Position numbers and translations under genes: made by a program. The notes under the pieces are model-generated. The model had not been told where the DNA came from. It was given only the letters and a program-made list of their open reading frames with translations, and ran no database searches. A stretch of 27,177 nt of DNA, from positions 1 through 27,177 of IMG/VR virus record IMGVR_UViG_3300037242_000184; one strand, given 5' to 3'. This stretch comes from a virus. Shown in pieces: positions 6,861 through 25,202 of this stretch. How positions within the stretch are numbered: position 1 is the stretch's first letter; each line of letters opens with the position of its first letter.

Positions 6861-7079
6861 TCAGTCGAACATCGGGCGAGCCTTGACAGCAATGAAGCCT
6901 TTTTCGGTGAGGTAAAGAAGATCAGTGGCGCCTTCACCGATGGTCCCGTCGCGCTCGCATCCTCGGATCAAATCTTCGACGAGCGATTCAGTGAAGATCG
7001 ACCGCTTTCTCAGGGTTTCCTTGGTCAAACACCCATGGTCCCAGATCAGCCTTAAAACGCACCATTCCGCGGCGGTCAT
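6861..7079 (-). CDS. Small winged-helix-type protein, 72 aa
   Basis: The start is the ATG at 7079, overlapping the stop of the methyltransferase gene. The product (MTAAEWCVLRLIWDHGCLTK, then a helix and a two-strand wing ending YLTEKGFIAVKARPMFD) follows the helix-helix-helix-wing order of a small winged-helix DNA-binding domain. The LTEKG segment is the common wing of MarR/PadR-like folds. It is probably a phage DNA-binding or regulatory protein. It is the last gene before the transposon-like insertion. Confidence 0.55.
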   Translation of the reverse strand: MTAAEWCVLRLIWDHGCLTKETLRKRSIFTESLVEDLIRGCERDGTIGEGATDLLYLTEKGFIAVKARPMFD

Positions 7080-8500
7080 GGCGTGCTGCCCTTTCCTCTC
7101 TGAAGTGCCCTTCGCTGGCTTGGGGAAAGCGGACGCTTCCACATCTCGTTCCACGGGCCATCCTTAGGGGCGGCCGCGGGAAGCCGCTCGGCGCCCGTTT
7201 CTGCGAAGCTACGGCAGGTTTTTTCGAGGATGGCCGATTGCTTGGCGAAATTCTGCCACCGTTGCACTGCGACATCGACATAGGCTGGGCTGATCTCGAT
7301 CGCGCGGCAGGCGCGCCGGGTCATCTCCGCCGCAATAATGGTCGTGCCGGAGCCGACGAATGGATCATAGACGGCATCGCCTGGCTTCGAGTTGTTTTCG
7401 ATCGGGCGCTTCATGCACTCGATCGGTTTTTGCGTGGAATGGCCGGTTTCGGATTTAGCGTGGGGAATCTCCCAGAGGGTTGTCTGCGAACGGTCGCCAC
7501 TCCAGAAATGCTTTCGCCCCTTTCGGACCGCGTACCAGCAAGGCTCGTGGCGCCAATGATAATCTCCGCGGCTTATGACGAAGCGCGGCTTTGCCCAGAT
7601 TATCTGGCAGACAATTTCAAACCCAGCGGCCTCTAAGGAAGCTTGGACGACGCTGGCATGCCGACCGGCATGCCAGCAGTAGACGACGCTTCCTGAAAAC
7701 AGTTTCCACGCCTCAGTCCAGTCTGTTCGGTCGTCGTTATGCACGGCCGATATGGCGCTCGCGCCATATCCAATTGAACCTTTCTTCGCGGCTTCGTTGC
7801 GCCAGTTTGCATCATATTCCACGCCATAAGGCGGATCGGTCACCATCAGATGCGGCTTCGCGCCGGCGAGACAGCGCTGGACGTCATCGGCCTTCGTCGC
7901 ATCACCGCAGAGCAGCCGATGGCCGCCGAGCAGCCAAACATCGCCCAGCACGCTTACTGGATCGGCCGGCGGCTCCGGTGCAGCTTCCGGATCGACCGCG
8001 CCTTCTGTCCCAGCGAGAACACCAAATCCGCGAAGCTCGATTTCCGGGAATCCGAGGAGTTCAACGTCATAGCCCTCGGCCTTCAGACTGAATAATTCCT
8101 GCTTGATCAGATCGTCGGACCAGCCCGCCAAAAGAGCAACTTGGTTGTCCTGAATCCGCATCGCGCGCTTGTCGACTTCGGAAAGTCCGAACCTTTGAAC
8201 GAAGGGAAAGTCCAGCAACCCCGCGGCGGCCGCAGCCTGAAGGCGCCCGTGGCCCTTGATGATGATCCAGTTCTCATCAACGACGATGGGCTGATCGGAG
8301 CCGTGCTTGCGGATGAGATCGGCAAGAAGGGCGATCTCGGCGGCTGGGTGACTTCTAGCGTTGAGCGGATACGGCTTGAAGCGCTTCAGCGGAGCGCGGC
8401 CCGAGATCATCTTCTGGTCCGCGCCGGGGACGGAAAACGGATCGACCGCATCGCGCATCGCCGCGGGAACTCTGGTCGGCGGTCTTTTCACGGGCATCAC
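7076..8500 (-). CDS. ParB-domain and DNA methyltransferase fusion, 474 aa
   Basis: Residues about 33-130 form a ParB/Srx-like nuclease-fold domain (PLKRFKPYPLNARSH, then IIIKGHGRLQAA). Residues about 185-430 form an SAM-dependent DNA methyltransferase of the N4-cytosine/N6-adenine beta type: the catalytic DPPYG motif is at 222-226 and the SAM-binding DPFVGSGTT at 379-387. The order catalytic motif then SAM motif fits the beta class. Such ParB-methyltransferase fusions are common in phages and usually act as orphan modification enzymes that protect phage DNA; no restriction enzyme is encoded beside it. The start is GTG at 8500 (GTGA overlap) or the ATG three bases later. Confidence 0.9.
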   Translation of the reverse strand: MMPVKRPPTRVPAAMRDAVDPFSVPGADQKMISGRAPLKRFKPYPLNARSHPAAEIALLADLIRKHGSDQPIVVDENWIIIKGHGRLQAAAAAGLLDFPFVQRFGLSEVDKRAMRIQDNQVALLAGWSDDLIKQELFSLKAEGYDVELLGFPEIELRGFGVLAGTEGAVDPEAAPEPPADPVSVLGDVWLLGGHRLLCGDATKADDVQRCLAGAKPHLMVTDPPYGVEYDANWRNEAAKKGSIGYGASAISAVHNDDRTDWTEAWKLFSGSVVYCWHAGRHASVVQASLEAAGFEIVCQIIWAKPRFVISRGDYHWRHEPCWYAVRKGRKHFWSGDRSQTTLWEIPHAKSETGHSTQKPIECMKRPIENNSKPGDAVYDPFVGSGTTIIAAEMTRRACRAIEISPAYVDVAVQRWQNFAKQSAILEKTCRSFAETGAERLPAAAPKDGPWNEMWKRPLSPSQRRALQRGKGSTP

Positions 8501-10727: not shown

Positions 10728-11390
10728 TTAGCCCAAAAGATCAGCGCCGAGGAACCGGCGCCCAGTCGCGCGGCAGATCTCGAGCACGCCCCAGCCGCCA
10801 GCACAGGGATCGACAACCAGCTCGCCCGGCTTCGTGACAGCGCAGATGAGGCGCTCCAATAGCCGGATAGGCTTTGCATGCGCGTGCCGGCGGCGTTCCT
10901 GGAGTTCGAGCCAGACATCCTCGATGCTGTGGTCCCGCCAGCAGCCAGCGGCCTTGATCGGGGCCTTCTGCGCGACGACAAGGAATTCGGCGCGGCAACG
11001 CGAGCGGCGCCCCATGCCGATTCGACCTTTGTCCCAGCAGAGAAGGTCGACGATCTGCAATCGGGTATAGCGAAGATAGGCCAAATGCCGGCCTCCCCCG
11101 ATCATGAACTTGTCGGCCCAGAGGAAAAGATGGCCGCTTGGGCGCAAGACGCGCTCGGCCTGCTCGACGAAGATGGCGATCAGATGCTCTGACATCGGCG
11201 GCAGCTTTGCCCGCTCTTTCTGCCGCGCGCCTTCGTTGCCGAAGGCCAAGGCGTCCAGGACCGACCGATATTGCGGGTCTAAGATCACAAGCGCGGCCTC
11301 GGCAGCGTGGATCGATCGAAGGAGCTTGAGGCCGTCACCCCCGTTCCTGGCGTCGCGCGCGAAGGCCGCGCCAGAAACCCGAGCGTCCAT
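10728..11390 (-). CDS. DNA methyltransferase with DPQY variant motif, 220 aa
   Basis: Catalytic motif IV is LDPQYR (DPQY at residues 38-41) in place of the common DPPY, and the SAM-binding motif is DPCAGG (194-199) near the C-terminus. The catalytic-then-SAM order puts it with beta-class N6-adenine/N4-cytosine methyltransferases. The DPQYR form with a following FGNEGARQKERA segment is a recognisable phage subfamily. It probably modifies phage DNA; target unknown. The start is the ATG at 11390 with AGG four bases upstream; an in-frame TTG at 11417 would overlap the RuvC gene. Confidence 0.8.
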   Translation of the reverse strand: MDARVSGAAFARDARNGGDGLKLLRSIHAAEAALVILDPQYRSVLDALAFGNEGARQKERAKLPPMSEHLIAIFVEQAERVLRPSGHLFLWADKFMIGGGRHLAYLRYTRLQIVDLLCWDKGRIGMGRRSRCRAEFLVVAQKAPIKAAGCWRDHSIEDVWLELQERRRHAHAKPIRLLERLICAVTKPGELVVDPCAGGWGVLEICRATGRRFLGADLLG

Positions 11391-11403
11391 GATCCTATTC
11401 GCC

Positions 11404-11916
11404 CTATCCCGCAGCAAGAATATTTTCTTGCGGCAGTTTCAGATGCCCGCGCTCTTCGCCGAGAAGCATGGCCCCATACCGGGCAATCAAGGCCGCGTCT
11501 GCCCTGTTGTGGTCCTTCTTCCGATCGAAGAATGCCGTTCCGGGGAAAAGCTTGATCGCCCGCTGGCGATCATCCTCTTTGGAGGCCCGAATCAGCCCGT
11601 GGGCCTTCTTCCAGGCCGTCGGCTCAATGATGGTGCTCGGGATGCCAAGGGCCTCCACGACCGCCTCTAAGGCTCCCACGGCCCTGCCGTAATGGAAGCC
11701 AGACGAGGCCCCCTGTTCCGGCATGGCTTGGCTTCTCTCGATGAAGGCGTGATCCGGCGCGTTGGCCCGGAGATAGCGGGCGAGATAGCCGACATCGACC
11801 CGCCGCTTGGCCTTCTCCCCCGTCGTCGGGACATCGATGGCATCGATGAGAACGCGCCCGTTCTGGACGAGCGCGATGCCGCCGTTGAGGCCGCAGTCTA
11901 TCCCAGCGATGATCAT
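11404..11916 (-). CDS. RuvC-like Holliday-junction resolvase, 170 aa
   Basis: The protein has the RNase H-fold acidic residues of the RuvC family: D7 in IAGIDCGLNGG, E60 in FIERSQAMPEQG, and H136/D140 in KKDHNRADAALIA. KLFPG and WKKAHGL segments also fit. RuvC cleaves four-way junctions; phage versions resolve recombination or replication branches before packaging. The 170-aa length is normal. It is probably the junction-resolving partner of the ERF/YqaJ recombination proteins on the rightward arm. Its start overlaps the upstream stop as ATGA. Confidence 0.9.
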   Translation of the reverse strand: MIIAGIDCGLNGGIALVQNGRVLIDAIDVPTTGEKAKRRVDVGYLARYLRANAPDHAFIERSQAMPEQGASSGFHYGRAVGALEAVVEALGIPSTIIEPTAWKKAHGLIRASKEDDRQRAIKLFPGTAFFDRKKDHNRADAALIARYGAMLLGEERGHLKLPQENILAAG

Positions 11917-13436: not shown

Positions 13437-13678
13437 GTTGGTCGCGGTATCGCGAAAAGACAAAGAACGGTTATGTGATTCATGCCGATGTCGAAAGCGG
13501 GGATGGTCGCACACTTTGCGGCTACGCCCTCGAAGGATCGTGTGTTGACGGTGAAACCGATACCGGGGCTGAAATAACCGAACGCGGCAAGATCAACTGC
13601 CCCGATTGTCTGCGAATCATCCGGCATTGCAAACAAATCCCGCAAACTGTACTCGATTGGAGTTATTTAATCCCGTGA
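13433..13678 (+). CDS. Small Cys-containing protein, 81 aa
   Basis: The preferred start is the ATG at 13433, in an ATGA overlap; the ATG at 13427 adds only two residues. The product has single cysteines in LCGY and GSCVD and a C-terminal CPDC pair followed by RIIRHC, perhaps a small zinc ribbon. No family is recognised. Confidence 0.55.
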   Translation: MSWSRYREKTKNGYVIHADVESGDGRTLCGYALEGSCVDGETDTGAEITERGKINCPDCLRIIRHCKQIPQTVLDWSYLIP

Positions 13679-14253
13679 CCTCCGCTCCCACCCCTCTCCA
13701 ATCCGCATGTGACGCCGCGAGCGATGAAGTCGAGCGCGTGGTCACGCAGATCTATCGTCGTTTCAACGATTGGAGCAAGCGCGGCTTCGGGCCTGACGAT
13801 GTGACGTGGTGCGAAGTCAAAGCGAACATTATCGAACTGGTCACGGCGATGCCGCGCGCCCCGCAGGAGTCTGTCAACGCGCAGATGTTGGAGGCGCTGG
13901 AGAAGATCGTCGCTGCCACGCAAAACCTCTGCGACAACTGGTATCCGGATGTAGATCAAGAGACAGCACGAAGTGCAGCGAAAGAGGAAATCGAAACTGC
14001 CCGCGCCGCCATTGCAGCCGCCGAGGCCGCGCCGAAGGATGAGTGGCAGCCGATTGAAAGCGCGCCGAGGGATGGAACGCGATTCCTCGCCTTCGCGCAT
14101 CAAGTCGATTCATTCGGCGAATGTGACTTCATTGGCACCTGCGAATGGAAAGGTGCTCTTGTAGAAGGCGGCTGGTCGTTTGGATTTCCAGCAAGCCCGA
14201 CCAACTGGTGCCCGTTCCCCGCTCCGCCATCTCAACCGGAGCCGGGACGATGA
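13675..14253 (+). CDS. Early protein with DUF551-like C-terminus, 192 aa
   Basis: The start is GTG at 13675, in a GTGA overlap with the previous stop; a longer frame from 13606 runs over that gene. The order is an N-terminal PLQSACDAASDEVERV segment, a helical middle with RAPQESVNAQMLEALEKIV, an alanine-rich IAAAEAAPKDEWQPIESAP hinge, and a C-terminal domain beginning DGTRFLAFAHQ and ending NWCPFPAPP. The WQPIESAPRDGT...F.PFP pattern is that of DUF551-like phage proteins. It is related to the gene at 24564, with which it shares a 46-bp identical DNA stretch in the hinge. Confidence 0.7.
   Translation: MTSAPTPLQSACDAASDEVERVVTQIYRRFNDWSKRGFGPDDVTWCEVKANIIELVTAMPRAPQESVNAQMLEALEKIVAATQNLCDNWYPDVDQETARSAAKEEIETARAAIAAAEAAPKDEWQPIESAPRDGTRFLAFAHQVDSFGECDFIGTCEWKGALVEGGWSFGFPASPTNWCPFPAPPSQPEPGR
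14008..14053 (+). repeat. 46-bp direct repeat, copy 1
   Basis: These 46 bases are identical to 24948-24993, more than 10 kb away and in the same orientation. Both copies encode the AIAAAEAAPKDEWQP hinge of two related proteins. Shorter identical stretches lie at the GATGAAGTCGAGCGCGTGG near 13723/24709 and at the C-terminal CGTTCCCCGCTCCGCCA. Confidence 0.8.
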
Positions 14254-18240: not shown

Positions 18241-18866
18241 ACATCACCGAATGCTCGTGCGAGAAATGTCGGAGCGAATGCGGGCGCGTTCCAGGATGGG
18301 TTTTCCCTTGTGAAGCAATCGAAGGTGGCGTGATGGGCATGGACATTCACGGCGTGAAGCCGACCAGCGAAGCCGGAAAGTATTTCAGGCGCAACATTTG
18401 GGGGTGGCGACCGCTCGCGCAATGCGTGACGATACTCTGCCCGAAAGAAACGGCGCTCTGCAAACACTGGCAATCGAATGATGGCGACGGCCTGGATGGT
18501 CCAGGCGCGCGAGATCTCGCGGTTGCCTTGCAGGATAGGATCGATGTCGGCGACATACGCACTTACGTCAAGATTAGGGATGACATGCTTGCGTCGCTGC
18601 CAAACGAGACATGCGAGTGGTGCGGCGGAACTGGGACACGGCGTGATTCTATTGGCGTCGCTAGCGGACAGCCGGAGTGCAAGATCCCGGCCGACGCCAA
18701 ATGGATGGGCGGAGCGCATCCGCGGGCCGGACAAATCGGGTCGTGCAACGCTTGCGACGGCCGCGGCTTCAACCGGCCGAACCTGGCCGCATATCCGCTC
18801 GAAGAAAATGACGTCACGGAATTCATCGAGTTTTTGCGCGACTGCGGCGGCTTCGAGATTGATTGA
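18237..18866 (+). CDS. Cys-rich early protein with DnaJ-type zinc motifs, apparent fusion, 209 aa
   Basis: Residues 1-28 hold a cysteine module (CSCEKCRSECGRVPGWVFPC). Residues 33-90 (MGMDIHGVKPTSEAGKYFR, then NIWGWRPL) are the usual start of a separate phage family. Residues 125-180 contain CEWCGGTGTR and CNACDGRGF, paired CxxCxGxG knuckles like the DnaJ zinc domain. An internal ATG at 18333 would give the usual shorter protein, so either a fusion or two nested products is possible. The start at 18237 is in an ATGA overlap with the upstream gene. Confidence 0.6.
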   Translation: MNITECSCEKCRSECGRVPGWVFPCEAIEGGVMGMDIHGVKPTSEAGKYFRRNIWGWRPLAQCVTILCPKETALCKHWQSNDGDGLDGPGARDLAVALQDRIDVGDIRTYVKIRDDMLASLPNETCEWCGGTGTRRDSIGVASGQPECKIPADAKWMGGAHPRAGQIGSCNACDGRGFNRPNLAAYPLEENDVTEFIEFLRDCGGFEID

Positions 18867-18879
18867 GAAAGAACCTCCG

Positions 18880-19167
18880 ATGAGAGCACTTTACCCCATC
18901 GTCGGCACCAAATTTCGCGAAGGAGCCGAAGCGTTTCTCAAGACGCTCAAGGCCGGCGAGCCGCTGACGCTCGAACGCGAACCCGCCAACGCCTTTGATC
19001 CGCTCGCCGTCCAAGTCCATGCACGCGGCGTCTTCATCGGCTATCTGCCGAAGAAAGACCGGGCTGCGGTCGCGATGGCGATGGACGAGAACCCGCAGCT
19101 CGTCCCGAAGGCCGTTCTTCGCTTCTCCGCGAACAGCGGCTATCCGCACGCGGAGGTCGAAGAATGA
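18880..19167 (+). CDS. HIRAN-domain protein, 95 aa
   Basis: The whole protein is one HIRAN-like domain: LYPIVGTKFREGAEAFLKTL, then GEPLTLEREPANAFDPLAV with VFIGYLPKKDRAAVA. The DPLAVQV...IGYLP core is the family hallmark. HIRAN domains bind 3' ends of single-stranded DNA, as in HLTF, so a role in handling recombination or replication intermediates is likely. It lies a few genes upstream of ERF and YqaJ. The next gene overlaps by four bases. Confidence 0.8.
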   Translation: MRALYPIVGTKFREGAEAFLKTLKAGEPLTLEREPANAFDPLAVQVHARGVFIGYLPKKDRAAVAMAMDENPQLVPKAVLRFSANSGYPHAEVEE

Positions 19168-22317: not shown

Positions 22318-22574
22318 GCCCTATCCCGAGATATCGCCGACGAGAGCCGCTGCAGTCCGGTGCAAGAGGCTGGGACATCGAGCTCCACATCATCGACATG
22401 GGCCGGGCACTTCTTGATCTTTCCGCCGACGAATTCCCGAGTTGGCATCTCCGCTTCGATGCCTATCGTGACGCCGGCTTTCGCATCGAAGAGATCAAGC
22501 CCGACGTCGACGAAGAAATCCTTCGCCGCGAGCATTTGCGCCGGCAGGCCTTCAGCAACGGAATGCACCAATGA
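22314..22574 (+). CDS. Small unknown protein, 86 aa
   Basis: The start is GTG at 22314, with AGGAAG just upstream and a GTGA overlap; another GTG at 22278 lies farther into the previous gene. The product is alpha/beta (WDIELHIIDMGRALLDLSAD) with a charged helical end. It sits directly before the ATPase and may be its partner. No family is recognised. Confidence 0.55.
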   Translation: MSPIPRYRRREPLQSGARGWDIELHIIDMGRALLDLSADEFPSWHLRFDAYRDAGFRIEEIKPDVDEEILRREHLRRQAFSNGMHQ

Positions 22575-24310
22575 TCGAGCACCAGAAAGATGCCGCCTTC
22601 CCGATTCCGGCCAAAGCGATGGATGATCGGCTGGGCATCCTCGGAACATCTGGGAGCGGCAAAACATATTCTGCTTCGACGGCGGTCGAGCGGTTGATGG
22701 ATCAAAAAGCACGCGTGGTCGTCATTGATCCGCTTGGGGTTTGGTACGGGCTGCGTCTCATGGCCGATGGAAAGACCGCATCGCCTTACAATGTGGCGAT
22801 CTTCGGTGGCCCGCACGGCGATCTTCCGCTGACCGAAAATGCCGGGGCCTTGATAGGAGAAACCGCTGCCTCGATCGCAGAGAGCTGCATCGTCGATCTG
22901 AGCGAGCTTCCGACCAAAGCGTCAGAAATCCGATTCATGACTGCGTTCCTCGATGCGATGTATCGAAAATCCAAAGGGGGCAATCTCTTTCATCTGATCG
23001 TCGATGAGGCTGATCTGTTCGCTCCGCAGAAGCCGCAACACGACGAGACGAAGCTTCTCAACCGAATGGAGCAGATCGTGCGGCGTGGCCGCGTCAACGG
23101 ATTCATCCCGTGGTTGATCACTCAGCGATCTGCGGTTCTCAACAAGAATGTCTTGAGCATGGTGCGGGGATTGGTAGCTTTTGCCATGACCTCGTCGCAG
23201 GATCGGAACGCCCTGGATGCATGGATCGAAGGTCAGGCCGACCAAGCACAGGGTAAGGCGATCAAAGCGGCCCTGCCGACCTTGAAGCTCGGGCAGGCCG
23301 TCGTCTGGCTTCCTTCGCACGGCATTCTCAGAACCGAGCAATTCCCGCTCAAGAAGACGTTCGACAGTTCGCGCGCGCCGAAGCGCGGGGAGAAGCGCGC
23401 GACACGCGCACTGAAGCCGCTGGATCTCGGCGCTCTAAAGGACAAGCTTTCGACCATCGAAGCCGAGACGAAGGCGAACGATCCGACGGCGCTCAAGATC
23501 GAGATTGCGCGCTTGACGGTCGAACTGAAAAAGGCACAGCAAAATATAACCAAAAATATAACTGCGCCTGATCCGAAGGCGATCGAGGCGGCCGAGCAGC
23601 GCGGCTACGCAAAGGGCAACGATGCCGGATTTGAATTCGGCTATACTGACGGCTTACAGGCGGGTCGCGCGGATGCGCTCCAAGATATCCAAGAATACGC
23701 GCGGCAATGCCTTCCGGCGCCCGCCAAGCCGCGCCATGCGCCGCCGCTGCCGGCGCCCCCACGCGCGCCGAGCCCCAAGCCAGCGGTCGCCCCTGCGAAG
23801 CCTCGGGCCTATTCAGGCAATGGGGCAGAAGCCGGCCGGCCGCTTGGGGCCGAGCGCAATCCTTTGGCCGCGCTGGCATCAGCTTTCCCGGCCGGAATGA
23901 CGGAAGCGCAATGGGCGGTCGCCGCTGGCTTGAAACGCTCGGGCGGGACATGGGGCACCTATCTCTCGAGACTTAAGACAGCCGGGCGGATCGAAAAACG
24001 CGACGGCGTGTTCTACGCGACCGAACAAGGGATCGCCGATCTAGGCGGGAACATCCCGAGCCTTCCGCAGCCCGGACCTGAGCTTGTGGCGTTTTGGGCG
24101 CAACGCATTTCTGGAGCTTCGAAGATGCTTTGCCGTCTTGCCGAGGTTTATCCGGGCGCCCTCTCGCGCGCCGAACTCGCCGCCGATCTTGAGATGACCG
24201 AAAGCGGAGGCACCTTCGGTACCTATATCTCGCGGCTCCGGTCGCCGGGATTGATCGAAATAAAAGACGGGAAAATCAGCGCTTCTCCATCTTTGATGGA
24301 GCCGATATGA
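22571..24310 (+). CDS. HerA/FtsK-like ATPase with tandem C-terminal winged helices, 579 aa
   Basis: Residues 1-280 form a DUF87-type P-loop ATPase: Walker A GTSGSGKT at 25-32, Walker B LIVDEAD at 142-148 with E146, and TQRSAVLNKNVLSMVRG around 184-200. A coiled segment follows (295-340), then a proline-rich linker (about 385-410). Two similar winged-helix repeats close the protein, each with a GGT(W/F)GTY(L/I)SRL(K/R) helix (about 470-485 and 547-562). HerA-like ATPases pump or unwind DNA as hexamers, usually with a nuclease partner. Here the ATPase may work with the YqaJ/ERF system or take the place of a replicative helicase, since no DnaB-type gene is seen. Confidence 0.85.
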   Translation: MIEHQKDAAFPIPAKAMDDRLGILGTSGSGKTYSASTAVERLMDQKARVVVIDPLGVWYGLRLMADGKTASPYNVAIFGGPHGDLPLTENAGALIGETAASIAESCIVDLSELPTKASEIRFMTAFLDAMYRKSKGGNLFHLIVDEADLFAPQKPQHDETKLLNRMEQIVRRGRVNGFIPWLITQRSAVLNKNVLSMVRGLVAFAMTSSQDRNALDAWIEGQADQAQGKAIKAALPTLKLGQAVVWLPSHGILRTEQFPLKKTFDSSRAPKRGEKRATRALKPLDLGALKDKLSTIEAETKANDPTALKIEIARLTVELKKAQQNITKNITAPDPKAIEAAEQRGYAKGNDAGFEFGYTDGLQAGRADALQDIQEYARQCLPAPAKPRHAPPLPAPPRAPSPKPAVAPAKPRAYSGNGAEAGRPLGAERNPLAALASAFPAGMTEAQWAVAAGLKRSGGTWGTYLSRLKTAGRIEKRDGVFYATEQGIADLGGNIPSLPQPGPELVAFWAQRISGASKMLCRLAEVYPGALSRAELAADLEMTESGGTFGTYISRLRSPGLIEIKDGKISASPSLMEPI

Positions 24311-24573
24311 GAACTGCGACCCTTACGCCGACTCAACTCGCGGTCCTGCGGATCTTTGCCGAGCACGGGCCTCTCTCGAGAGAAGCGGCAAGAGCTCTCG
24401 CAGTTTCTCGCGGGATGAGATCGCAGGTTTTCGGGAACGCATACAGTCGGCTGTTTTGGATGCTCAAAGGCCATTCTGACGCACGCAAAATAAATCGAGT
24501 AGGGCGCACTGTGCTCGATGCCGCAGACCGAGAATCACTTCTGCCGAAAGAGGAGGCAACGCCATGCAAGTGA
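24307..24573 (+). CDS. Small winged-helix-type protein, 88 aa
   Basis: LTPTQLAVLRIFAEHGPLSR, then EAARALAVSRGM and a short C-terminal part with SRLFWMLK, reads as a winged-helix DNA-binding domain. It resembles the C-terminal repeats of the ATPase directly upstream and overlaps that gene by four bases, so it may be a detached third copy. Confidence 0.55.
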   Translation: MRTATLTPTQLAVLRIFAEHGPLSREAARALAVSRGMRSQVFGNAYSRLFWMLKGHSDARKINRVGRTVLDAADRESLLPKEEATPCK

Positions 24574-25202
24574 CGAATGCCGTTCGTACCGCTGCATACC
24601 AAGCAGCACATGCGCTGCCGATGCACGTAGGCGAACGCGAATTTATCGACGCCGCTCTCGAAGCCGCGTTCGCCATCGCGGAGAAAGCCGGGCCGCAGCC
24701 TTCGAAGGATGAAGTCGAGCGCGTGGCGCGGGGGATTGATCTAGATTGGTATGACGAAACCCGAGACGAATATAGGACTCGGATCGCGCGTGAAGCCATC
24801 GCCGCGATGAACCGCGCCCCGCAGGAGCCGGTCAACCCGCAGATGCGGGAGGCGCTGAAGGATCTCTTGCTGCATGCTGGTATTGCCGATGCTGACCCTG
24901 AAGATGTTGACGAAGATGACCGCACACGTGAACGCCGCGCCCGTGCTGCCATTGCAGCCGCCGAGGCCGCGCCGAAGGATGAGTGGCAGCCGACGCATCA
25001 ACATGCTGAAGGCGGCCTATATCGTTTTGTGAAGGATGGCTTGATGCGTGAGCACGATACGCCTCGAACTACCGGAGGATGGGTCGCAGCGATCTTCTAT
25101 GAGAACGAAGCGCGCCAAATGTTTGCTACGGCGCCGTCGCGTTGGTTAGCCCGTTTCACACCGTTCCCCGCTCCGCCATACCAACAGGACACGCCGAAGT
25201 GA
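24564..25202 (+). CDS. Early protein related to the 13675 gene, 212 aa
   Basis: The middle RAPQEPVNPQMREALKDLL and the hinge ARAAIAAAEAAPKDEWQP match the protein at 13675-14253, as does the end FTPFPAPP. The N-terminus (MQVTNAVRTAAYQAAHA) and the section after the hinge differ, so the two are mosaics with shared parts. This is the last gene of the coupled rightward arm. Function unknown. Confidence 0.7.
   Translation: MQVTNAVRTAAYQAAHALPMHVGEREFIDAALEAAFAIAEKAGPQPSKDEVERVARGIDLDWYDETRDEYRTRIAREAIAAMNRAPQEPVNPQMREALKDLLLHAGIADADPEDVDEDDRTRERRARAAIAAAEAAPKDEWQPTHQHAEGGLYRFVKDGLMREHDTPRTTGGWVAAIFYENEARQMFATAPSRWLARFTPFPAPPYQQDTPK
24948..24993 (+). repeat. 46-bp direct repeat, copy 2
   Basis: Identical to 14008-14053. 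Recombination between the copies would delete nearly the whole rightward arm, including ERF and the ATPase. Confidence 0.8.

What the first reader, a model, noticed from the sequence alone, without database searches (positions are those of the whole stretch)
22571..24573. HerA-like ATPase carrying two winged helices, with a third coded separately behind it
Seen: Walker A and B motifs, then a proline-rich linker and two GGT(W/F)GTY-SRL repeats, then an 88-aa winged-helix-like gene overlapping by four bases. The repeats may load the motor on a specific DNA site. No replicative helicase gene is visible in the window, so this motor could serve replication or recombination in a new way.
Basis: partly seen in the sequence, partly recalled or inferred. 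Interest (0 to 1): 0.5.

Follow-up and report, generated by a model that had tools for sequence, protein, structure and literature searches.

The report
Phage DNA motor with matched readers
This phage gene encodes a ring-type DNA pump that ends in two DNA-reading domains whose reading helices are nearly identical within one protein, differ from phage to phage, and seem to be exchanged as a cassette, which suggests a motor with a swappable DNA address.

Summary
The 579-aa HerA-type ATPase and its two C-terminal winged helices (WHs) are real; a third WH is not supported. The gene belongs to a widespread accessory family of phages, prophages and plasmids: 122 of 137 homologues carry exactly two WHs. 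It lacks HerA's N-terminal barrel and helical insert, and no conserved partner gene was found. It is no stand-in for a replicative helicase: DnaB occurs in 10 of 49 carrier records and 10 of 50 controls, and the window has its own primosomal-protein homologue. YqaJ is not enriched (7 of 49, 13 of 50).

The new result: within one protein, exposed recognition-helix positions of the two WHs agree in 94% of cases against 33% by shuffling (hold-out, n = 117), although the motif varies widely (181 distinct among 232). Scaffolds barely agree; codons argue against gene conversion. Motor and WH pair are inherited almost independently (rho 0.73 within the motor, at most 0.09 between motor and WHs). Best reading: a dsDNA translocase addressed by two identical, swappable readers of a short DNA word. 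The word and the process served are unknown.

The parts
22571..24310 (+). HerA-type ATPase with two C-terminal winged helices, 579 aa
   Evidence: ORF; Pfam DUF87 8.1e-8; AlphaFold2 mean pLDDT 90.2; homologues in viral, genome and plasmid collections
22583..23395 (+). motor core, residues 5-275: minimal HerA fold without N-terminal barrel or helical insert
   Evidence: Z 26.2 to an anti-phage HerA, 25.6 to archaeal HerA of HerA-NurA, 25.0 to Sulfolobus HerA
22643..22666 (+). Walker A, residues 25-32 (GTSGSGKT)
   Evidence: G30 and K31 invariant, G28 at least 90% in 107 sequences; aligned with HerA
22991..23011 (+). Walker B, residues 141-147 (E146)
   Evidence: E146 invariant; aligned with HerA
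23087..23128 (+). GRxxG (R174, likely arginine finger) and TQR (184-186) motifs
   Evidence: G173 and G177 invariant, R174/Q185/R186 at least 90%; aligned with HerA; the finger role is recalled, not tested
23429..23707 (+). long helices, residues 287-379 (possible coiled-coil stalk)
   Evidence: DSSP on the model: helices 287-302, 305-329, 335-379
23708..23830 (+). Pro/Ala-rich linker, residues 380-420, probably disordered
   Evidence: pLDDT below 50 in 382-393 and 401-417
23855..24043 (+). winged helix 1, residues 429-491
   Evidence: model pLDDT 96; Z 10.8 to a MarR-type WH; WH profile E 1.5e-20 (the profile was seeded with this repeat)
23930..23971 (+). WH1 turn and recognition helix, residues 454-467
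   Evidence: profile columns 25-38, matched with WH2 of the same protein
24119..24298 (+). winged helix 2, residues 517-576
   Evidence: model pLDDT 96; WH profile E 4.8e-18 (the profile was seeded with this repeat)
24194..24235 (+). WH2 turn and recognition helix, residues 542-555
   Evidence: profile columns 25-38, matched with WH1 of the same protein
24307..24573 (+). 88-aa ORF behind the motor gene; not shown to be part of the system
   Evidence: no homologue in viral contigs or phage records; no similarity to the WHs above chance

Best explanation
The gene encodes a sequence-addressed double-stranded-DNA translocase of the HerA/FtsK class. The N-terminal ATPase forms a ring (inferred from its solved relatives) that pumps DNA. 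Long helices and a flexible linker carry two winged helices whose recognition helices present the same residues, so one chain reads two copies of one short DNA word and puts or turns the ring there. The recognition residues vary from phage to phage, nearly always in both copies together, and the WH pair as a whole has been exchanged between motors; the phages thus seem to trade the address and keep the engine. Shown here: the motor fold (predicted) and motifs, the two WHs, the matching, the swapping, the patchy distribution, recombination genes upstream in about a third of the loci, no conserved partner gene. Inferred: hexamer, pumping, DNA as the ligand, loading at the word. Unknown: the word itself, and whether it lies in the phage's own DNA (recombination, segregation, delivery), in the host or in rival elements.
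For: Motor: Z 25-26 to HerA structures over residues 5-275, catalytic motifs aligned. Two WHs: 122 of 137 homologues, duplicates included; 176 of 179 motor ORFs in later loci, partly from the same contigs; model pLDDT 96. Matching, hold-out with the frozen profile and columns fixed beforehand (n = 117): WH1 equals WH2 at columns 29, 30, 31, 33, 34, 35, 37 in 93.6% against 33.0% shuffled; scaffold columns 32.8% against 26.9%. Set 1 (n = 115), on which the columns were chosen: 93.9% against 31.8%, scaffold 31.9% against 26.1%; column 33 alone 93% against 13%. Among 71 representatives of both sets below 45% scaffold identity: 89.9% against 28.2%. Column 33 is mostly N, S, R, D, G, A, T. The wing column 47 is matched in part (44% against 11%). 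Little sign of gene conversion: identical codons in 465 of 967 matched pairs (48.1%, expected 44.7%) and 501 of 1001 (50.0%, expected 43.6%). Swapping: pairwise-identity rho 0.73 between motor halves, 0.01-0.09 between motor and WHs, hold-out 0.73 and 0.05; L019/L026 share DNA similarity only over the motor, L004/L009, L066/L108 and L018/L061 only over the WH module. In a scan with the WH module it was found behind this motor in 21 of 22 viral loci, the other cut by the contig end.
Against: No target word was found: no repeats of note inside the genes and no convincing word dyad shared by phages with the same recognition motif, within the loci held. WH1 is only mildly basic (median net charge +3) and WH2 neutral (0), so WH2 may not bind DNA on its own. 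That the matched residues are exposed is inferred from the helix pattern; no coordinates were at hand. Helix columns taken as buried are matched in part: 32 (71% against 29%; 78% against 38%), 36 (47% against 34%; 68% against 41%); 39 is not. Some columns outside the helix are matched too (16, 20, 23, 40, 41, 47); 16, 20 and 47 were left out of the scaffold figures. The match is not universal: 19 of 115 and 12 of 117 proteins share 6 or fewer of the 9 motif positions (shared gaps count as equal). The small codon excess leaves room for some short conversion.
Confidence: 0.6

Rival explanations
1. Recombination or end-processing motor of the phage (HerA-like role beside ERF, YqaJ or RecT): the ring moves on branched or broken DNA, and the WHs only help it hold DNA. 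Compatible with part of the best explanation, but without a specific address.
For: Ten families tied to recombination or DNA processing (RecT, two YqaJ clusters, DUF3799, ERF, NinB-like, RNase_T, SSB, AAA_23, DUF968; names) lie within 6 kb upstream in 29 of 86 loci and downstream in 1 of 85. The window has ERF, YqaJ, a NinB-like protein and a RuvC-like resolvase.
Against: The ten families were picked after seeing the neighbour list, so the upstream bias is partly by choice. No single partner is conserved; YqaJ is not enriched against controls (7 of 49 against 13 of 50). A general DNA-holding domain would not need two matched and variable recognition helices.
Confidence: 0.25
2. Weapon between mobile elements: the motor is addressed to a word in rival phages, plasmids or the host and displaces, moves or exposes that DNA; the address is swapped under an arms race. 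A special case of the best explanation.
Against: No conserved nuclease or toxin neighbour was found (clustering by BLAST could miss one), and PADLOC HerA and mad8 models match only the motor part of this protein.
Confidence: 0.25
3. The two recognition helices agree because they meet in a pseudo-symmetric protein interface (with each other or with a two-fold partner), not because they read DNA.
For: WH2 is not basic; the presumably buried helix column 32 is matched too. WH folds also serve protein contacts (recalled).
Against: The most strongly matched columns are the turn and one face of the recognition helix, with part of the wing, the usual DNA-contact set (recalled); column 33 is highly variable and mostly polar or small; the scaffold as a whole is hardly matched.
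Confidence: 0.2
4. Replicative helicase or helicase substitute.
For: No DnaB_C match in the window; a motor gene near early genes.
Against: DnaB in 10 of 49 carrier records and 10 of 50 controls; primosomal-protein homologue in the window; patchy distribution.
Confidence: 0.05
5. Packaging motor (phrog_2666, the best PHROG match, is named terminase large subunit).
For: PHROG match 8.5e-17 over residues 16-257; Z 19.7 to the archaeal-virus packaging ATPase B204.
Against: Separate Terminase_6N genes in 15 of 49 carrier records, 13 of them over the cut-off (other terminase families were not searched); the annotated relative MW202482 has its own terminase and portal.
Confidence: 0.03

Closest known systems
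HerA of HerA-NurA and anti-phage HerA complexes (PDB 4d2i, 9x1m, 8xav)
   Same: ATPase fold and motifs (Z 25-26)
   Different: no N-terminal barrel, no helical insert, no conserved partner gene found; two C-terminal WHs
FtsK/SpoIIIE with a C-terminal gamma WH that reads KOPS (gamma/KOPS recalled)
   Same: works alike in outline: dsDNA pump plus C-terminal WH reader behind a linker; motor Z 15.8
   Different: motor closer to HerA; two WHs with matched variable helices; almost nothing before the motor in this protein
HerA/FtsK 'clade 6' and related capture systems (PMC10853773, passages read)
   Same: HerA/FtsK ATPase with 1-2 C-terminal wHTHs and no linked nuclease in eukaryotic elements; their C-terminal D-s-G-x-[ST] signature resembles the T-F-D-S-S-x-T stretch here
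   Different: those have a four-helix insert and mostly an N-terminal wHTH-derived extension; matching and swapping of the WHs are not mentioned in the passages read
RuvB branch-migration motor
   Same: ring motor with a C-terminal WH that resembles WH1 (Z 9.6)
   Different: AAA+ motor with one WH that works with RuvA (recalled)
MarR-family dimers
   Same: two WHs present two reading helices (recalled); fold of WH1 (Z 10.8)
   Different: there by dimer symmetry, here by two diverged domains in one chain

Membership tests
HerA (HerA-NurA type) | Walker A, Walker B, GRxxG, [ST]QR motifs and HerA core fold | tested here: met
HerA (HerA-NurA type) | N-terminal barrel (HAS domain) before Walker A | tested here: not met
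   24 residues before Walker A here; median 27 at the longest listed start over 103 homologues, of which 14 have room for 100 or more; the model shows no such domain
HerA (HerA-NurA type) | helical insert between Walker A and Walker B | tested here: not met
   median 118 residues between the motifs in the family, against about 250 in T. kodakarensis HerA (read from the alignment)
HerA (HerA-NurA type) | NurA or other partner nuclease next door | tested here: inconclusive
   no neighbour family in more than 24 of 130 loci, and that one is of the Gp37/Gp68 kind; some loci have nucleases nearby; NurA itself was not searched for
HerA curated models (NCBIfam) | score over the curated cut-off | tested here: not met
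   30.8 and 30.6 bits against cut-offs of 800 and 970
FtsK/HerA translocase superfamily | motor fold and signature motifs | tested here: met
FtsK/HerA translocase superfamily | hexamer that pumps dsDNA | not testable with these tools
   only single chains could be folded
Clade-6 HerA/FtsK of PMC10853773 | 1-2 C-terminal wHTHs | tested here: met
Clade-6 HerA/FtsK of PMC10853773 | four-helix insert in the ATPase | tested here: not met
   no helical insert in the model and a short stretch between the Walker motifs
Clade-6 HerA/FtsK of PMC10853773 | C-terminal extension signature | tested here: inconclusive
   a rough pattern fits 123 of 232 proteins, 84 with an arginine close before it
DnaB-type replicative helicase | DnaB_C domain | tested here: not met
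   not among the Pfam matches of the protein; no match in the record
Terminase large subunit | sole large packaging ATPase of the phage | tested here: not met
   15 of 49 carrier records hold a separate Terminase_6N; MW202482 has its own terminase
MarR-like winged helix | wHTH fold | tested here: met
   VIA rows cover mostly WH1, and Foldseek had no match at E <= 0.001

The most novel reading that the evidence does not exclude
A DNA motor with an exchangeable two-reader address: the two winged helices of each protein carry a matched recognition word that changes in both copies together, so that phages pass on address cassettes independently of the engine, and the residue-to-base code could be read from the natural variants (181 distinct motifs among 232 proteins) and used to send a translocase to chosen DNA.
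Probability: 0.4. Interest if true: 0.85.

Novelty: new variant of a known kind. Interest (0 to 1): 0.68.

Why it matters
Translocases that start at a DNA word are few (FtsK at KOPS is the textbook case, recalled). Here more than two hundred natural motors carry different readers with a built-in check, since each reader occurs twice. That makes the target code solvable by binding assays on a panel of variants, and makes it testable why phages keep and trade such motors: own-genome handling or conflict with other elements. It also warns that 'HerA helicase' or 'terminase' labels on these genes may mislead.

Tried and rejected
Replicative-helicase substitute: rejected on DnaB counts. YqaJ/ERF partnership: no record-level enrichment of YqaJ; ERF was run on carriers only. 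Packaging motor: rejected. Iterons inside the gene, as in lambda O (recalled): not seen; 8-mer copies in the stretch before the WHs 2.50 against 2.30 in synonymous shuffles, 9-mers over the whole gene 3.11 against 2.69. Arrays of a 12-base unit before the motor in L021 and L025 looked like target sites but in L021 seem, by eye, to lie in a coding repeat of another gene. Shared word dyads in five groups of phages with equal recognition motifs (15 tests, words of 4 to 6 bases, 60 random groups each): four tests reach or pass the 5% level of random groups (CACA inverted, spacing 1, group SGGRNSS; AGAGC direct, spacing 7, the window's group GGTGTYS; GCCGGA inverted, spacing 4, group S--DTYQ; CGCCGC direct, spacing 0, group SGGNNLG), where about one is expected; two of them are ties with that level and one is a GC-rich simple repeat, so I take them as weak leads only. 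A target outside the loci held is not excluded. The Gp37/Gp68-like neighbour as partner: scattered positions. The parsimony counts on the motor tree (column 33, 62 of 70 changes on shared branches, 58 to the same residue) are not used as evidence, because the WH module does not follow that tree. Literature: nine searches in the open-access library; by title and start of abstract none was on this family or on matched tandem WHs; most subscription papers and all preprints are not held. Papers: passages only of PMC12839542, PMC7824862, PMC10853773. Fold absence: no FtsK gamma chain appeared among the listed WH matches, which excludes nothing.

Rows dropped and limits: set 1 left out seven duplicate loci (L001, L002, L033, L067, L090, L092, L105); of 137 motor ORFs 13 had no WH and 2 had one (from the list: five end at a contig end, one has its WH pair in another frame; the rest are unexplained). 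The hold-out dropped WH pairs at least 90% alike to set 1 or to each other (176 to 117); 22 of its 180 input loci had been fetched with WH-module patterns and three came, the other 155 with motor patterns. The seven helix columns and the three left-out scaffold columns (16, 20, 47) were chosen on set 1. Viral scans return at most 80 loci, so the family is larger than what was studied. Co-occurrence counts used the window and carrier records of 40 kb or more (49). Controls were the contigs of 40 kb or more from two capped terminase scans: 54, of which four known carriers (L144, L224, L256, L291) were left out, so 0 of 50 describes the remainder. One search scored at most 11 candidates in each genome shown, so its count is a lower bound.
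Full report
WHAT WAS CLAIMED AND WHAT IS THERE. The window is a virus record of 27,177 bases, possibly a fragment. ORF 22571-24310 encodes 579 aa. Pfam sees DUF87 at 8.1e-8 and TrwB_AAD_bind at 7.6e-5, both over their cut-offs; HerA_C is below its cut-off. PHROGs give phrog_2666, named terminase large subunit, 8.5e-17. AlphaFold2 on an alignment of 107 sequences gives mean pLDDT 90.2. The core (residues 5-275) matches HerA structures at Z 25-26, conjugation ATPases and the viral packaging ATPase B204 at 16-22, FtsK at 15-16. Profile alignment with solved HerA proteins places Walker A, Walker B, GRxxG and [ST]QR on each other. There is little room for the N-terminal barrel in most members and the stretch between Walker A and B is short. 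Behind the core come long helices, a linker with low confidence, and two winged helices. By VIA-align the first resembles MarR-type readers (Z up to 10.8); Foldseek alone gave no match at E <= 0.001 for the pair; by profile the pair matches SmtB and MarR proteins at 2e-5.

THE THIRD WINGED HELIX. The 88-aa ORF at 24307-24573 has no homologue in viral contigs or phage records, is not hit by the WH profile and aligns to WH1 and WH2 at chance level, while WH1 and WH2 align to each other with z = 21. In the nearest relative, L002 (99.1% identical DNA over 2,048 bases around the motor gene), the same place holds a poorly alike, stop-broken frame with similar ends (z about 5). It is an ordinary overlapping neighbour as far as could be tested.

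THE FAMILY. Scans with the motor gave 243 viral stretches, of which 80 were kept, 51 bacterial or archaeal loci and 24 plasmid records. Of 137 ORFs with the motor, 122 carry exactly two WHs, two carry one, 13 none. Among 54 contigs of 40 kb or more with one of two terminase families taken from carriers, four were known carriers and the other 50 had no match, while the same search found the gene in 9 of 9 known carriers. In 120 further genomes drawn from one bacterial order it was found in 2 (a lower bound, which counts 3 of 121 with the centre). It looks like an accessory gene.

REPLICATION AND RECOMBINATION. DnaB_C occurs in 10 of 49 carrier records and 10 of 50 controls (1 of 31 in one terminase group, 9 of 19 in the other); the window encodes a primosomal-protein homologue. 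So the data give no sign that the motor replaces DnaB. YqaJ occurs in 7 of 49 carrier records and 13 of 50 controls, ERF in 4 of 49 carrier records; the window is one of the carriers in the YqaJ and ERF counts. Ten recombination-related families, picked after seeing the neighbour list, lie within 6 kb upstream in 29 of 86 loci and downstream in 1 of 85. No neighbour family is conserved enough to be an obligate partner.

MATCHED RECOGNITION HELICES. Aligning both WHs of 115 non-redundant proteins to one profile, I asked how often WH1 and WH2 of the same protein hold the same residue, against shuffling WH2 among proteins. Most scaffold columns agree little more than by chance; a few outside the helix are matched in part (16, 20, 23, 40, 41, 47). 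The recognition helix agrees in most proteins: column 33 in 93% (13% expected), columns 29-31, 34, 35, 37 in 89-100% (22-63% expected). Yet the motif differs widely between proteins: 103 distinct pairs among 115, and 82 of 115 proteins have at least 8 of 9 positions equal, shared gaps counted. The window has GGTWGTYLS and GGTFGTYIS; others have for example STGYTNPRS twice, SSGYGNNLG twice, GSNIRGRLS twice. By helix pattern (inference, no coordinates) columns 33, 34, 35 and 37 are exposed and 32, 36, 39 buried; 39 is not matched, 36 weakly, 32 intermediately. The seven columns were then fixed and tested with the frozen profile on new loci: 117 proteins whose WH pairs are less than 90% alike to the first set give 93.6% against 33.0%, scaffold 32.8% against 26.9%. 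With 71 representatives of both sets below 45% scaffold identity it stands at 89.9% against 28.2%.

IS IT GENE CONVERSION? If copies were homogenised at DNA level, matched residues should share codons. They do so in 465 of 967 cases (48.1%), where codon use of the same gene predicts 44.7%; in the hold-out 501 of 1001 (50.0%) against 43.6%. A small excess remains in both, so some short conversion is possible, but selection on the protein seems needed to keep the helices alike while the scaffolds drift.

SWAPPING. Pairwise identities of the two motor halves correlate at rho 0.73; motor and WH identities at 0.01-0.09, in the hold-out 0.73 and 0.05. L019 and L026 have 94% identical cores and 24% identical WHs, and BLASTN of the two loci finds similarity only over the motor. 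L004 and L009, L066 and L108, and L018 and L061 share similarity only over the WH module; L006 and L008 share that module plus one 73-base piece of the motor. So motor and reader have moved as separate cassettes among phages otherwise unlike in the loci compared. In a scan with the WH module, 21 of 22 viral loci have it behind this motor and one is cut. In plasmids it lies under genes named HerA-like, DUF87, ATP-binding or type IV secretory, two hypothetical proteins and one unannotated record, 12 records in all, all of them also hit by the full protein; with a second WH query, one of five records has the module in a separate gene, probably a broken copy (inference).

HOW IT MOST LIKELY WORKS. 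A ring translocase (inferred) carries per chain two identical readers. Two readers of one word suggest a repeated site, direct or inverted, at which the ring loads or is oriented, as gamma does for FtsK (recalled). I could not find the word (four weak leads in Tried and rejected). WH1 is mildly basic and WH2 neutral, so a protein interface is not excluded.

WHAT IS KNOWN. Passages of PMC10853773 describe HerA/FtsK ATPases with one or two C-terminal wHTHs in eukaryotic elements of their clade 6 and the capture of such ATPases by defence systems; passages of PMC12839542 describe rapidly evolving wHTHs with HerA/FtsK in related systems. The architecture is thus a variant of a known kind. The matching and the swapping I found in none of the nine literature searches (listed in Tried and rejected), judged by titles, abstract starts and the passages named.

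VERDICT. Observation partly confirmed, replication reading not supported, site-specific loading supported indirectly and made testable.

Noticed in passing
window 7076-8500 (-): Protein with ParB-type and DNA methyltransferase parts (phrog_498 1.3e-121; ParB PHROGs at the N-terminal part); a second methyltransferase-like ORF lies at 10728-11417.
   Followed up: no
window 11404-11916 (-): RuvC-like Holliday junction resolvase (phrog_1770, 2.1e-35).
   Followed up: no
window 18478-19167 (+): HIRAN-domain protein next to the recombination genes (Pfam 6.7e-10).
   Followed up: no
window 24564-25202 and 13606-14253 (+): Two related ORFs of 212 and 215 aa (phmmer 1.4e-15) at either side of the early region.
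   Followed up: no
L021 2168-2887: About 720 bases of 12-base units (24-base period, 30 copies) before the motor gene, by eye inside another gene; a shorter array of a like unit in L025.
   Followed up: partly
genome G104, behind L110 (Kaistia dalseonensis): Two copies of the motor gene in one genome.
   Followed up: no
L304 (Mycolicibacterium aubagnense plasmid): WH module as a separate small gene near a tyrosine-recombinase gene, the motor part about 14 kb away; perhaps a copy split by an insertion.
   Followed up: partly
L002 8030-9814: In the nearest relative the motor's stop is shifted, adding 15 residues that read into the neighbour gene.
   Followed up: partly
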